Below are positions 328 through 4,579 of a stretch of DNA of 64,000 nt, in pieces. The notes beneath the pieces were generated by a model that was not told the DNA's origin, made no database searches, and was given only the letters and a program-made list of their open reading frames with translations. The stretch comes from Pseudobutyrivibrio sp. OR37 (GTDB lineage: Bacteria > Bacillota > Clostridia > Lachnospirales > Lachnospiraceae), in assembly GCF_900113655.1 (NCBI RefSeq), contig NZ_FOQF01000002.1, positions 33,671 through 97,670 on the forward strand. The letters are read 5' to 3'. The translations under genes were made by a program, and so were the position numbers. Position 1 is the stretch's first letter. Every line of letters begins with the position of its first letter.

Positions 328-626
328 ACTTTACTATCTACAATTAAAAATTCATCATGGGTAGTAGCAAAAAATCAATTAACTACTATCTTAAATCAAA
401 AATAAGCCTTAGGTAGTAGGCATCTTCAATCCCATTACTATCCTCTACATAAAACAAACTACAGGTAGTAGTTTCATACTGGCTCATTACTATCTATAAC
501 TGATAATAATCCCCAGATAGTAGTTTACTCTAAAATCACTACTATCCACAACTCGAAATCTCCACTGGATAGTAATTTCATTTAGACTCACTACTATCTG
601 GTTGTAATAAATTATCCGAAGAAGTA
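328..626. repeat. Array of inverted-repeat units with an exact 52-bp period
   Basis: TACTATC occurs at 332, 384, 436, 488, 540 and 592, always 52 bp apart. The complementary arm GGTAGTA or GATAGTA occurs at 360, 412, 464, 516 and 568, also 52 bp apart; a decayed arm (AGAAGTA) stands at the expected 620. Each unit is thus a 7-8 bp dyad with a 21-bp loop, separated from the next by 17 bp. Loops and separators differ completely in sequence but not in length. Units 3-6 share an extended TCAYTACTATC left arm, and units 3-5 a GRTAGTARTTT right arm. 52 is not a multiple of 3, so the array does not encode a protein repeat. It sits inside a split Hint gene. Confidence 0.9.
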
Positions 627-629
627 ATT

Positions 630-680
630 TTCAGGATGTCTCAACTCTCCTGCCTTAACAAATCCTCTTTCTAGAGTATA
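630..680 (-). pseudogene. Hint domain fragment (middle part)
   Basis: Minus-strand translation gives YTLERGFVKAGELRHPEN, matching the middle of the Hint domain in the Rhs protein (TLERGFVKAGELRYSDT). The homology stops where the 52-bp array begins, and resumes at about 190 with the residues that should come next. The Hint sequence is therefore split by about 440 bp. On its other side the homology ends at a perfect palindrome (681-712). Confidence 0.75.
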
Positions 681-712
681 GGTATTAGATTTTCATCAGA
701 AAATCTAATACC
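681..712. repeat. Perfect 14-bp inverted repeat (hairpin)
   Basis: GGTATTAGATTTTC, a 4-base loop, then its exact reverse complement. It abuts the end of the Hint fragment and lies just beyond the xylanase terminator. It has no T-tract on either side, so it is not a classical terminator. It may be the end of a lost element or an extra 3' stem of the xylanase transcript. Confidence 0.7.
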
Positions 713-721
713 GGACTATAA

Positions 722-775: not shown

Positions 776-3700
776 TTATCTAAGTGATACAATTACAACT
801 CTATCACCAACTAAAGGATCATTTCCCTTAATGTGAATCATGCCGAGTCCTGTGAATCTTTCTCTTACTACAACTGTAGCTTCGAAATCCTTTCCAGACT
901 CAAGTGTTACTACTGCGCCCTTCTTAACGCCGAAGTGCTTAGCCTCAGAATTTGTCTTAACAGTGTAGTATGCCTTTATCTTTACTGCACCTGTTCTCTT
1001 GTTGTAGCTTGCGTTTCTATCTACTCTAGCTTCAAGAACATGGATGCTTACTTCTTCAAGAATATCAAGCTCTACGCTTGTAGCGCCAACGAAGTTCTTA
1101 CCCTTTGCTGTAACTACTGCATAGTATGTTCCATCTGCATTAGAAGCGTGTGCTGGAAGCTTGTTTAAAAGCTTGCCATTCTCGCCAAGTCTGTACTGTA
1201 ATGTGTAGTTAGACTTAGAAAGTGTCTTACCATTGAAGTAAACTGTTACGCCTGGGCGTGTTGTGAAGATGCTCTCAACAAATGTATCAACTGGCTCAAC
1301 CTCAATTGCATCCTCATCTGCAAAATCAACTGGAGCAATTGTGAAGTTTGCCTTTACAGCTTCGTTCTCAGCATATTCGCCAATGAACTTAACCTCTACT
1401 GTAGGAAGTGAAGCATTGAAGTCCTCACCCATACCATTTCCTACCTTTGCTGCTGCATTCTTATTGTTCTTGTAAGAAACTGTGTAATCTACATCCTTAA
1501 CAAGTACCTTGTCACCAGCTGTAACAACTACCTCTGGAGTAACCTTTGCACCTGTGTATACTGCATCAGCTACCTCTGCAACTGATGGTGTAACGATTAC
1601 TGGCTCTTCTGGAGTATCAGGTGTTTCCTCACCGTCTACAAGTGTAACCTCGCCAAATACCTTTGGTGCAGACCAGCCATTACCTGTCTCATCATACCAG
1701 CTGCGTGTACCGATACGAGCGCCGTTTGAACCATCATTAATCTGTAAATCAAGACCGATAGCTGCTCCAACTTCTGGTGTGATATCTGTCCAAGCAAATG
1801 CTGCTTCAACCATGTAACCATCATCTGTTACCTTAACAGCATGCTTAAGGTTGTCCTCAAGGCACTTGTCGCCGTTAAAGCTTGTCTCATTTAAGTAGTT
1901 AATTCGGTACTGTTTGTCATCTGCCTCATATCCATCAGACTTGTGATTGTTCTCATCGATGAATACTTCTACAGAATCCTTCTCATGAACTGCTGAAGCT
2001 GATGCATCTAAATCATCATCCTTTACGTTCATAAGAACATAGAGGTTTTCCTCATCCCAAAGAAGCTTTGCTGTAGCTGTAGCCTTTGGATTTGAACCAG
2101 TAACAGCTAAATTTACTTCCTTAGCAACTTCCCAAGCATCATCAACATCGCCATCAACTGTAACAGTTCCCTTTGTTACATTCATGTATGGCTTGCAGAT
2201 TGCCTTTGCATAGTACTTGCTACCTTCATCCTGTGTGAGACGAAGATTGTTGAATGCGTGGTCTCCATCAGCATCTGTTACTACTACATCCATTGCAAGA
2301 CGTGAAGTAGCAACTAACTGCGAAGGTGCAGCAACCTCAAGTACTGCTTCTCCATTTTCATCAAGGGTAGCTTCAGCTGTTACAACTGATGCGCCATCCT
2401 TCATATCTGATGCAAAATCAACATAAAGCTTTGCAGCCTTAGCGCCATTTGCCTTTACCTTTACAGAAAGCTTTTCTCCATCCCAAACTGGAAGGAATGT
2501 GTACTCTGTGCCTTCAATTGTTGCGCTCTTTGCATGTGCAAATGCGTCCTTGCCTGATGCAGCCTGAACTACTGTTAAGCTCTTGATAGCTGGCTCAAGC
2601 TTTGAAGGATCAACAAATGCCCAGTAAGCTGGCTTTGCCATGTAGTCGCCATCGAAAAGAAGTGGAACCTGCTTTCTGTTTCCGTTAGCTCCGCCACCTG
2701 CACTGTTTGATGTCTGTAACCAAGAGTTAGGATCGATTACACCCCAAACTGTAAATCCGTTTACATCGATATCTGGATCAGCATCGATTTCCTTGTATGC
2801 CTCAAAGATTTCCTTGTAACGATAAGCTTCTCTTGTGTACTCAGCAGCCTCTGTTGCAGATGTTCCATCGTACTCATCAGAGCACTTGAAATCAAGCTCT
2901 GTTACCTGAATCTTGCCTACAATCTTACCGTATCTCTTACCACAGTTTACAATCTGCTGCTTGCTAGGTCCGAGCATGTTGTGGTGTCCCTGCATACCAA
3001 AACCAGAAATTCTGGTAGGAAGAACAGCATCCTTTTCATGTCTCTTTACACTCTCAAGTAACTGTGCGATTGCATCTGGCTTGTTGCCTGAGCACTCGTT
3101 GTAATCGTTGTAGTAAAGCTCTACATCATCCTTGCCCATCTTGTGAGCATAGTAGTTTGCATATCTGAATGCGTTAAGGATGTAATCTGGAGCATCCTCC
3201 TTGCTTCCTGTTCCATAGATTCTAGCCCAGTTAGAACGCTCACTTGCGCTGGCGCTTCTGTATGTACCTGTGCTGTCTGAACAAGCCTCGTTTACAACAT
3301 CCCAGCCATAGAACATATCCTTGTATTCAGAAGAGAATACATGCTCGAATACGCTCTTGATGTACCACTCATGACGAAGTGTCATTTCCTCTGGTGATAC
3401 CCAGTCACCGTTTGGATCATAGTTCTCCTTGAAGAACCACTCTGGCGTCTGTGAATGCCATGTTAAAACGTGACCTCTAATCTTGATTTCCTTGTCTGGA
3501 TGCTCATCATTCCAATCCTTGATAACGCGAAGCATTCTCTCTGGACGTGAGAAATCAAGCTTTGGAACAGCCATATCCTTGTGTGTAACACCCTTCGCAT
3601 CTGTCCATGTTTCAGTAATAATCTGTCCGTCTGCTGGCTTTGAGTTGTTGTAGTTCATTAATGAATCTGGCTTAAACTCGTTACCAAATGTTACAGCATT

Positions 3701-4579
3701 GAAGTGCTTTTCTACGATATCCATCAAAGCTTCATCTGTGATTTCTGAAATCATGATGGCTGCACCTGTGTAGCTGTCCTTGCCAAGGCCCTTGTCACAA
3801 GAGATATAATCTCTTAAATCTGGAATATCCCACTGTATCTCAGGCTTTGTGTTGTCATCTACAATCTCGCTTGGTGTTGGGTAATCAGCTGCATCACCCT
3901 TAAGAGTAAGTGTAATACTCTGGATAGTAAATGATGTGCCACCACCTGAGCTATTCATCAAGCCGATTCCATCGAATTCAGCTTTGTCTGTGTTTTCAAT
4001 AACATCTGTTCCATAAGCTGCCTTTACTTCCTCACCCTTGTTTCTGAACTTAAGTGAGAAGCCTGATTTGCTGCCCTTTAACAGATTTGCTTTTACTGAT
4101 ACTACATCAGTACCCTTAATTCCTTTAGGTAGACCAAAAACTTTCTCCGCATAGTTTCCGCTGTACTCAATTTTTACGCCACCCTTTGATTTTGTAACAG
4201 TTGAACCCCATGAACCGCCTTCGTAACTGTCATCAAAATCGAACATGCTATAAGTGATTTGGCATGTCTTTTTAGAGTCCTCGTCTTCCTCAGAATCCTT
4301 CTTCTCCTCAGAAGCTTCTTCAGATTCAGACTCCTCCTCAGATTCTTCCTCGGACTCTTCCTTGGTTTCCTCTTCAGATTCTTCCTTTACTTCTTCTTTT
4401 ACTTCATCTTTTGTTTCTTCTGATTCTTCCTCTTGAAGCTCTTCTACAACTTCTTCAGCCGAATCTGTCTGTGATTCTTTTGCATTGACTAATGCAGGAC
4501 TTGGAGTTGTCATTAGCATAGTAGAAGCTATTGCTACTGACAACGCCTTGTAGATCTTTCTCTTTACCATAACCCTCAA
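776..4579 (-). CDS. Secreted multimodular GH10 endo-1,4-beta-xylanase with CBM9-type module
   Basis: Extracellular xylanase that should cut the backbone of plant xylan. The order is: signal peptide (about 1-33, with a KRK n-region), a very acidic Glu/Ser-rich stretch (about 37-105), a beta-rich N-terminal module (about 105-230), the GH10 barrel (about 255-665), an inter-domain beta region, a CBM9-like module (about 795-980, with VDGDVDDAW and LWDEENLYV), and a C-terminal beta-rich part. Predicted catalytic residues are the acid/base E431 in DVVNEAC and the nucleophile E561 in TELDF. The reading starts at TTG 4579, four bases from AGGAG; ATG 4570 in the same frame is possible. No LPXTG motif or S-layer module was recognised at the C terminus. 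Confidence 0.95.
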   Translation of the reverse strand: MRVMVKRKIYKALSVAIASTMLMTTPSPALVNAKESQTDSAEEVVEELQEEESEETKDEVKEEVKEESEEETKEESEEESEEESESEEASEEKKDSEEDEDSKKTCQITYSMFDFDDSYEGGSWGSTVTKSKGGVKIEYSGNYAEKVFGLPKGIKGTDVVSVKANLLKGSKSGFSLKFRNKGEEVKAAYGTDVIENTDKAEFDGIGLMNSSGGGTSFTIQSITLTLKGDAADYPTPSEIVDDNTKPEIQWDIPDLRDYISCDKGLGKDSYTGAAIMISEITDEALMDIVEKHFNAVTFGNEFKPDSLMNYNNSKPADGQIITETWTDAKGVTHKDMAVPKLDFSRPERMLRVIKDWNDEHPDKEIKIRGHVLTWHSQTPEWFFKENYDPNGDWVSPEEMTLRHEWYIKSVFEHVFSSEYKDMFYGWDVVNEACSDSTGTYRSASASERSNWARIYGTGSKEDAPDYILNAFRYANYYAHKMGKDDVELYYNDYNECSGNKPDAIAQLLESVKRHEKDAVLPTRISGFGMQGHHNMLGPSKQQIVNCGKRYGKIVGKIQVTELDFKCSDEYDGTSATEAAEYTREAYRYKEIFEAYKEIDADPDIDVNGFTVWGVIDPNSWLQTSNSAGGGANGNRKQVPLLFDGDYMAKPAYWAFVDPSKLEPAIKSLTVVQAASGKDAFAHAKSATIEGTEYTFLPVWDGEKLSVKVKANGAKAAKLYVDFASDMKDGASVVTAEATLDENGEAVLEVAAPSQLVATSRLAMDVVVTDADGDHAFNNLRLTQDEGSKYYAKAICKPYMNVTKGTVTVDGDVDDAWEVAKEVNLAVTGSNPKATATAKLLWDEENLYVLMNVKDDDLDASASAVHEKDSVEVFIDENNHKSDGYEADDKQYRINYLNETSFNGDKCLEDNLKHAVKVTDDGYMVEAAFAWTDITPEVGAAIGLDLQINDGSNGARIGTRSWYDETGNGWSAPKVFGEVTLVDGEETPDTPEEPVIVTPSVAEVADAVYTGAKVTPEVVVTAGDKVLVKDVDYTVSYKNNKNAAAKVGNGMGEDFNASLPTVEVKFIGEYAENEAVKANFTIAPVDFADEDAIEVEPVDTFVESIFTTRPGVTVYFNGKTLSKSNYTLQYRLGENGKLLNKLPAHASNADGTYYAVVTAKGKNFVGATSVELDILEEVSIHVLEARVDRNASYNKRTGAVKIKAYYTVKTNSEAKHFGVKKGAVVTLESGKDFEATVVVRERFTGLGMIHIKGNDPLVGDRVVIVSLR

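What the first reader, a model, noticed from the sequence alone, without database searches (positions are those of the whole stretch)
328..626. Six-unit array of dyads with an exact 52-bp period and unrelated spacers
TACTATC recurs at 332, 384, 436, 488, 540 and 592, and its partner GRTAGTA at 360, 412, 464, 516 and 568, with no drift at all, while the 21-bp and 17-bp stretches between them have diverged. Selection has kept only the arms and the spacing. 52 bp is five turns of B-DNA, so the dyads would lie on one face, as for a cooperative binding protein. Alternatively the plus-strand RNA makes five or six tandem hairpins: the G-for-A change in three right arms gives G-U pairs only in plus-strand RNA, and the base next to the arms changes in a paired way (T with A in unit 4, C with G in unit 5). 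I know no named element of this form.
Basis: partly seen in the sequence, partly recalled or inferred. Interest (0 to 1): 0.8.

Follow-up and report, generated by a model that had tools for sequence, protein, structure and literature searches.

The report
Phased DNA array with nuclease-like partner
A rumen bacterium carries rows of short mirrored DNA signals, spaced by whole turns of the double helix, that match the row found just before the gene of a nuclease-like protein, and related bacteria hold many such gene-and-row pairs, each with its own signal.

Summary
In detail: TACTATC-N21-GRTAGTA at an exact 52-bp step, six left and five intact right arms. Its own genome holds eight such arrays plus a remnant; 11 of 29 Pseudobutyrivibrio genomes match. 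The key result lies outside the window. The same kind of array stands 23-84 bp upstream of a gene for a ~263-aa PD-(D/E)XK-like protein without a Pfam or NCBIfam family. Paralogs of that protein have upstream arrays with their own arms (CAGTGGTAA, GACACGA, TTACAGTG, TTAAGT and others): clear in 26 of 43 genes scored, other genera included. A de novo scan of 2.0 Mb of a related chromosome found 19 arrays (none in shuffled DNA): 5 directly upstream of family genes, 1 just downstream, 13 remote. Unit spacings fall on whole helical turns (3, 4, 5, 6, 7; best period 10.3-10.45 bp), which favours DNA bound by protein on one face over RNA hairpins. The window array is a remote (solo) copy with constrained arms (96.8% against 78.7% identity in spacers). 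Binding and function are inferred, not shown.

The parts
332..598 (.). solo array of helically phased dyads, 5 full units and a sixth left arm, step 52 bp
332..366 (.). dyad 1: TACTATC 332-338, GGTAGTA 360-366
384..418 (.). dyad 2: TACTATC 384-390, GGTAGTA 412-418
436..470 (.). dyad 3: TACTATC 436-442, GGTAGTA 464-470
488..522 (.). dyad 4: TACTATC 488-494, GATAGTA 516-522
540..574 (.). dyad 5: TACTATC 540-546, GATAGTA 568-574
592..626 (.). dyad 6, decayed: TACTATC 592-598, AGAAGTA 620-626
   Evidence: homologous arrays keep GGAAGTA or GGGAGTA here
776..4579 (-). flanking gene whose 3' end faces the array, 1267 aa (glycoside hydrolase family 10 by eye, no family search run); no member of the partner family was found in the window
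   Evidence: the own-genome profile search lists no match in the window stretch

Best explanation
The array is a solo copy of a row of DNA binding sites belonging to a gene-and-array system. Each system is one gene for a ~265-aa protein (an N-terminal helix, three-stranded sheet, long helix domain and a C-terminal PD-(D/E)XK-like nuclease domain) with a row of inverted dyads between its promoter side and its start codon. Most likely a dimer of the protein binds each dyad across its A/T-rich axis, and the dimers line up on one face of the helix because units are spaced by whole turns. At its own gene the bound row would act as an operator or roadblock that limits the protein's expression. Copies of the row elsewhere, such as the window's, are bound in trans. 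They arise by array duplication and by loss of the gene between flanking arrays. Shown here: the gene-array link, paralog-specific arms, helical quantisation, constraint on the arms of the solo array. Inferred: binding by the cognate protein, dimers, autoregulation, nuclease activity, any effect at solo sites.
For: Ortholog of the C33 protein next to a TACTRYC array in G000, G400, G407, G398, G399, G401, G422 although the proteins are down to 47% identical. Paralogs have their own arms upstream: exact 6-mer inverted pairs at one spacing, score 3 or more upstream in 26 of 43 genes, 2 in 8, 1 in 9; downstream 3 or more in 5 of 43 (4 of these are genes flanked by the same arms on both sides); shuffles never above 1 (arrays shown). 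De novo scan of 2.0 Mb of G399: 19 arrays, 0 windows in shuffled DNA; 9 of the 13 remote arrays have the arms of a gene present in that genome (TTAAGT x7, TACTRYC x2). Spacings: 27 distinct non-5-turn events, best period 10.45, R 0.75; 18 collapsed events, best period 10.30, P 0.00002. Linkers 17 x317, 16 x6, 14 x2, 7 x5, 6 x9, none 8-13, some loci counted twice. Arm similarity follows protein similarity, more so for residues 31-100 (rho 0.55) than for the nuclease part (0.40), 15 genes. Arms of nine homologous solo arrays 96.8% identical, spacers 78.7%. E, D, E, H of the nuclease motifs in 51 of 51 sequences. Arrays end 4-84 bp before the start codon in 17 of 18 genes, 162 in one; a near-consensus promoter lies upstream of the array in 5 of 18 and none between array and start.
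Against: No binding, transcript or nuclease data. 9 of 43 family genes show no upstream array by this test (L145, L147, L155, L160, L169, L173, L174, L180, L191), some perhaps through decay or a wrong start. 4 of 13 remote G399 arrays (GACACG, GTATTA, ACTATA, CATCCC) have no cognate among the 8 genes found there. The DNA-binding domain is not proven: best Pfam match of the family consensus is the Tn916 integrase DNA-binding domain at E 0.0089, under its cut-off, while Foldseek puts the confident N-terminal model nearest prefoldin (E 0.016). The arm-protein correlation could come from shared descent alone. Where a promoter was recognised the array lies in the transcribed leader, which leaves room for an RNA role. 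Arrays are patchy within the genus.
Confidence: 0.65

Rival explanations
1. [quoted passage not shown]
For: Array between promoter and start codon in 5 of 18 genes; arms always complementary; at position 6 T-A 135, T-G 78, C-G 26, C-A 11; T-G and C-A seldom mixed within an array (minority 10 of 89 against 20.8 expected over all arrays); arm changes on both sides between species (TACTATC/GATAGTA, TACTACC/GGTAGTA, TACTGCC/GGCAGTA).
Against: Helical quantisation. Within-array covariation weak (P 0.04-0.22) and position 9 anti-paired. Arm identity, not only pairing, is conserved. Related arrays inflate the strand-coherence test (13 representatives: P 0.07 and 0.02). At the C33 gene the T-G strand is the one antisense to the gene.
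Confidence: 0.15
2. Selfish mobile repeat: the arrays spread as non-autonomous elements mobilised by the nuclease-like protein and do nothing for the host, as proposed for REP elements and their RAYT transposases.
For: About ten near-identical dispersed elements in G422 and G401 with arrays inside, several at contig ends; patchy occurrence; arrays on both sides of the gene in L139, L140, L141, L167; one array at a locus where relatives have two and the gene (L052); nuclease-like motifs.
Against: No target duplication or precise empty site shown; the one empty-site comparison (L077 against L080) looks like deletion inside an array. Constraint on arms but not spacers at an old shared site suggests that the sites are used where they are. 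Not exclusive with the best explanation.
Confidence: 0.25
3. Chromosome-organising sites: solo arrays bridge distant loci or hold domains, as centromere-like or nucleoid-protein sites do.
For: Some ten arrays spread over the genome, phased dyads fit side-by-side bridging; 17 of 19 G399 arrays between tandem genes, 2 between convergent, 0 between divergent ones.
Against: Copy number differs much between species and no clustering at dnaA (818 kb) is seen for the G399 TACTRYC arrays at 219, 1776 and 1900 kb; several orthogonal families per genome argue against one housekeeping role.
Confidence: 0.1

Closest known systems
REP/BIME elements with RAYT (TnpA-REP) transposases (PMC2817692: abstract and one section read; PMC3116915: abstract read)
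   Same: A gene with cognate palindromic repeats beside it, several orthogonal families per genome, dispersed extragenic copies, repeats that co-evolve with the protein.
   Different: Protein has PD-(D/E)XK-like motifs, no Pfam HUH/Y1 match; repeats are tandem arrays with whole-turn spacing and diverged spacers, about ten per genome rather than over 100; arrays lie upstream, not as an inverted pair around the gene.
Type III toxin-antitoxin loci such as toxIN (listing and abstracts seen; layout recalled)
   Same: Tandem repeats just upstream of a nuclease-type gene.
   Different: Unrelated protein by family search; units diverged except arms; DNA-turn quantisation; solo arrays without the gene.
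LytTR regulatory systems (PMC6193735, passages read)
   Same: Autoregulatory repeats of fixed spacing next to the regulator's own promoter, with repeat sequence differing between systems.
   Different: Those are two direct repeats upstream of -35; here 4-20 inverted dyads between promoter and start codon, and a nuclease-like protein.
CRISPR and TIGR-Tas arrays (recalled)
   Same: Short conserved segments alternating with variable spacers beside a nuclease gene.
   Different: Spacers drift by point mutation and are shared between homologous arrays; no unique guides; constant helical period; no Cas match in the scans run.

Membership tests
REP/RAYT | partner protein is a Y1/HUH transposase | tested here: not met
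   No such Pfam match among 20 family members, no NCBIfam match for 2 members; motifs RSKSE, PDF, WEHxG instead
REP/RAYT | gene flanked by two repeats in inverted orientation | tested here: not met
   Array upstream only in most scored genes; where both sides have one (L017 locus) both lie in the same orientation
REP/RAYT | dispersed cognate extragenic copies | tested here: met
   9 of 13 remote G399 arrays have arms of a gene in the genome
Type III toxin-antitoxin (toxIN, cptIN, tenpIN) | ToxN-type endoribonuclease | tested here: not met
   No Pfam match to such a family and no solved relative
Type III toxin-antitoxin (toxIN, cptIN, tenpIN) | array RNA is the antitoxin | not testable with these tools
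   Needs expression work
PD-(D/E)XK nucleases | acidic catalytic residues in the family pattern | tested here: met
   E of RSKSE, D of PDF, E and H of WEH in 51 of 51; PHROG endonuclease matches in 13 of 20
PD-(D/E)XK nucleases | fold | tested here: inconclusive
   Full model mean pLDDT 58.8, C-terminal half poor; no PDB match by sequence
Integrase arm-type (Tn916-like) DNA-binding domain | three-stranded sheet plus helix with significant similarity | tested here: inconclusive
   Model of residues 1-100 has helix, three strands, helix at pLDDT 92.9; consensus E 0.0089 to PF02920; Foldseek nearest prefoldin, none at E 0.001
CRISPR array | conserved repeats with unique acquired spacers | tested here: not met
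   Only short arms conserved; spacers homologous between loci and species
Known structured RNA | Rfam match | tested here: not met
   0 matches in the window

The most novel reading that the evidence does not exclude
A so far undescribed class of bacterial gene-repeat systems: a multi-copy family of nuclease-like proteins, each addressed to its own helically phased dyad array, that seeds genomes with solo arrays and builds orthogonal nucleoprotein tracts on them. The family would be widespread in Lachnospirales and neighbours (found in 21 of 116 genomes of the order) and would combine autoregulation with spread or genome structuring.
Probability: 0.5. Interest if true: 0.9.

Novelty: categorically new. 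Interest (0 to 1): 0.85.

Why it matters
It ties anonymous intergenic repeats to a protein family without a Pfam or NCBIfam name that occurs in up to 21 matches per genome, and gives one code per paralog: arm sequence, dyad width, whole-turn period. That makes DNA recognition by the family directly testable with a dozen natural orthogonal pairs, and offers a second, unrelated case beside REP/RAYT for asking why genomes keep repeat populations matched to a nuclease-like gene. Helical quantisation over 17 arm types is a rare sequence-only signature of side-by-side protein assembly on DNA.

Tried and rejected
RNA hairpins: covariation and strand tests (one search was a script error, repeated), flank folding. 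Weak, see rivals. Mutational strand skew explains the anti-pairing at positions 9 and 11, I think, but not the T-G excess on C-rich strands (read, no test).

Common function of flanking genes: neighbours are diverse (comEC-like, tetrapyrrole methylase, MazE-like, patatin, histidine kinase, symporter, MFS). Rejected as a regulon marker.

A 0.7-kb element with long hairpins in G422/G401 looked at first like a larger RNA containing the array; most other arrays lack those hairpins, so I treat it as a composite repeat.

Origin clustering: not seen. Viral contigs: none. Structure of the whole protein: poor model, Foldseek uninformative. Solved relatives: none. Gene-loss by array recombination at L052: consistent but not proven chimeric.

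Print: ten searches of the open-access library showed no description of this gene-array pairing; subscription papers and preprints are not covered.

Rows dropped: chains under 8 arms (12) were left out of the 257-unit statistics. In one search, 8 of 54 loci gave no gene by my motif rule, one had too little upstream DNA, two were duplicates; for about five genes the start was placed inside the gene. In one search, 15 genes were used, arms read off by hand; genes without a visible array, with an incomplete N-terminus, or near-duplicates were left out. In one search the start of L144 was set by hand. Arm families were grouped by hand; only spacings of 20-80 bp were used, and the junction spacings 41 and 42 of the head-to-head elements were entered by hand. 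Long spacings (over 100 bp) may be skipped units and are not independent.

Full report
Observation. The window holds TACTATC at 332, 384, 436, 488, 540 and 592 and GRTAGTA at 360, 412, 464, 516 and 568, a pattern with 0.00 expected matches in shuffled sequence. The sixth right arm is decayed. No Rfam family, tRNA or tandem-repeat call covers it.

Relatives. In the window's own genome (G000) the dyad occurs in eight arrays and one remnant, on contigs C15, C26, C33 (two), C35 (two), C48, C58 and C51. A scan of genome contigs returned 38 stretches: 36 Pseudobutyrivibrio, and single short matches in a Bacillota bin and a Psychrobacter, which I take for chance. A sample of 397 family genomes matched only G000 with the exact form; within the genus, 11 of 29 genomes match with up to two mismatches, the reversed control once in one genome. 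That count is a lower bound: G418, G153 and G423, negative there, have variant arrays upstream of the partner gene. Viral contigs gave none. Over 41 arrays of at least 8 arms (257 units) loops are 21 or 22, linkers 17; over all loci linkers are 17 x317, 16 x6, 14 x2, 7 x5, 6 x9, with a few loci counted twice. The 6-7 class sits at the middle of head-to-head elements. The dyad axis is A/T in 98-100% of 204 loops.

Selection on the window's array. Nine homologous arrays of the methylase-GH10 region and its duplicates keep 96.8% identity in arms and 78.7% in spacers. In two relatives (L031, L062) one array lies between the methylase gene and the large secreted enzyme gene; in G000 two arrays lie there, with about 14 kb between them.

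RNA or DNA. Position 6 shows T-A 135, T-G 78, C-G 26, C-A 11. Within arrays the pairing is not significantly better than shuffled at positions 6, 8 and 0, slightly so at 5 (P 0.04), and worse than shuffled at 9. T-G and C-A seldom mix in one array, but for 13 representatives this gives only P 0.07 and 0.02. Folding of either strand does not decide it.

The partner gene. Two C33 arrays flank a 263-aa gene. Its closest orthologs lie beside an array in G000, G400, G407, G398, G399, G401 and G422, down to 47% identity. The protein has no Pfam or NCBIfam family, matches the end of the PADLOC candidate PDC-S68 and weakly PHROG endonucleases. 28 of 29 genus genomes have at least one family match, 12 of them 8-11; 21 of 116 genomes of the order have one. 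E, D, E and H of the nuclease-like motifs are present in 51 of 51 sequences.

Each paralog has its own arms. Upstream regions of paralogs show arrays of other arms: CTACGTC, CATCCCA, TTACAGTG, CAGTGGTAA, TTAAGT, GACACGA, GACACGC, CACGCAG, CTACGGT, TACGTG, and TACTRYC variants in orthologs. By exact inverted 6-mers at one spacing the upstream score is 3 or more in 26 of 43 genes, 2 in 8, at most 1 in 9; downstream it is 3 or more in 5 of 43, four of them genes flanked by the same arms on both sides; shuffled upstream DNA never exceeds 1. Nine of the 26 are from other genera. Dyad width differs (left-to-right start distance 19 to 35 bp) while the unit step stays near 52-53 in most families.

Helical turns. 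Where the step is not 5 turns it is 3, 4, 6 or 7: 27 distinct events of 20-80 bp, best period 10.45 bp, R 0.75; 18 collapsed events, best period 10.30, P 0.00002. One event, 26 bp in TGCTAT, does not fit. With all spacings 201 of 219 lie within 0.2 turn of an integer. RNA would not require this.

A whole stretch of chromosome. In 2.0 of 2.7 Mb of G399 a de novo scan found 19 arrays and none in shuffled DNA. Five are directly upstream of family genes, one lies about 1.1 kb downstream of such a gene, 13 are at least 38 kb from any family gene in the scanned part. Seven remote arrays are TTAAGT, cognate to the array upstream of the gene at 1027082, which the scan itself missed; two are TACTRYC; GACACG, GTATTA, ACTATA and CATCCC have no cognate among the 8 genes there. 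Flanks are 17 tandem, 2 convergent, 0 divergent.

Layout and specificity. Arrays end 4-84 bp before the start codon in 17 of 18 genes, 162 in one; five have a TTGACA-17-TATATT or TATACT promoter upstream of the array, none between array and start. Arm similarity rises with protein similarity, rho 0.55 for residues 31-100 and 0.40 for the nuclease part, 15 genes; descent alone could give this. The first 100 residues model well as helix, three strands, long helix (pLDDT 92.9). The closest Pfam domain of the consensus is the Tn916 integrase DNA-binding domain at E 0.0089, under cut-off, but Foldseek ranks prefoldin first, with nothing at E 0.001, so the domain's role is open.

Reading. The simplest account is a protein family that binds its own phased array, probably controlling itself there, with solo arrays as further, constrained sites. 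It works like REP/RAYT in its gene-plus-cognate-repeats logic but is not a member: the protein, the repeat form and the layout differ. Binding, activity and the effect of solo arrays remain to be shown.

Noticed in passing
window 676-721 (minus strand), L058 and L060 upstream of arrays, L013 (G000:C48 near 78.9 kb), L102: A recurring structured module (GTCCGGT, hairpin with TTTTCTGATGAAAA, CCTATA, often preceded by a long CTTGTGGGCT hairpin and a CTTGGCTTCGCCAAG hairpin), with base changes that look compensatory between species; no Rfam match in the window. Candidate structured RNA or REP-like repeat of the genus.
   Followed up: no
window 631-681: A 51-bp stretch that recurs five times elsewhere on the same contig at 82-89% identity, three of them in the stretch of small ORFs upstream of the window.
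   Followed up: no
G000:C35 about 20.0-34.0 kb (L009): About 14 kb between the two arrays holds many small ORFs that by eye resemble polymorphic-toxin immunity cassettes and a Hint-like segment; absent between methylase and enzyme gene in L031 and L062.
   Followed up: partly
L125-L134 (G422), L136 (G401): Near-identical 0.7-kb dispersed elements: long hairpin, GTGGC..GCCAC hairpin, 2-3 dyads, 6-bp junction, 2-3 dyads, hairpins again, bounded by an inverted terminator-like hairpin; several at contig ends.
   Followed up: partly
L203 (G399:C1:219048-220018): About 19 nearly homogeneous TACTGCC/GGCAGTA units at an exact 52-bp step, as if recently expanded; the array at 1775.8 kb changes from 53-bp GCC/GGC units to 52-bp ATC/GAT units at a linker.
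   Followed up: no
L077 against L080: The array next to the 248-aa gene starts right after that gene's terminator-like hairpin in G407; in G000 only the first arm remains.
   Followed up: yes
L179 (another family of the order): A family gene with an upstream array at a 32-bp step, three turns instead of five.
   Followed up: no
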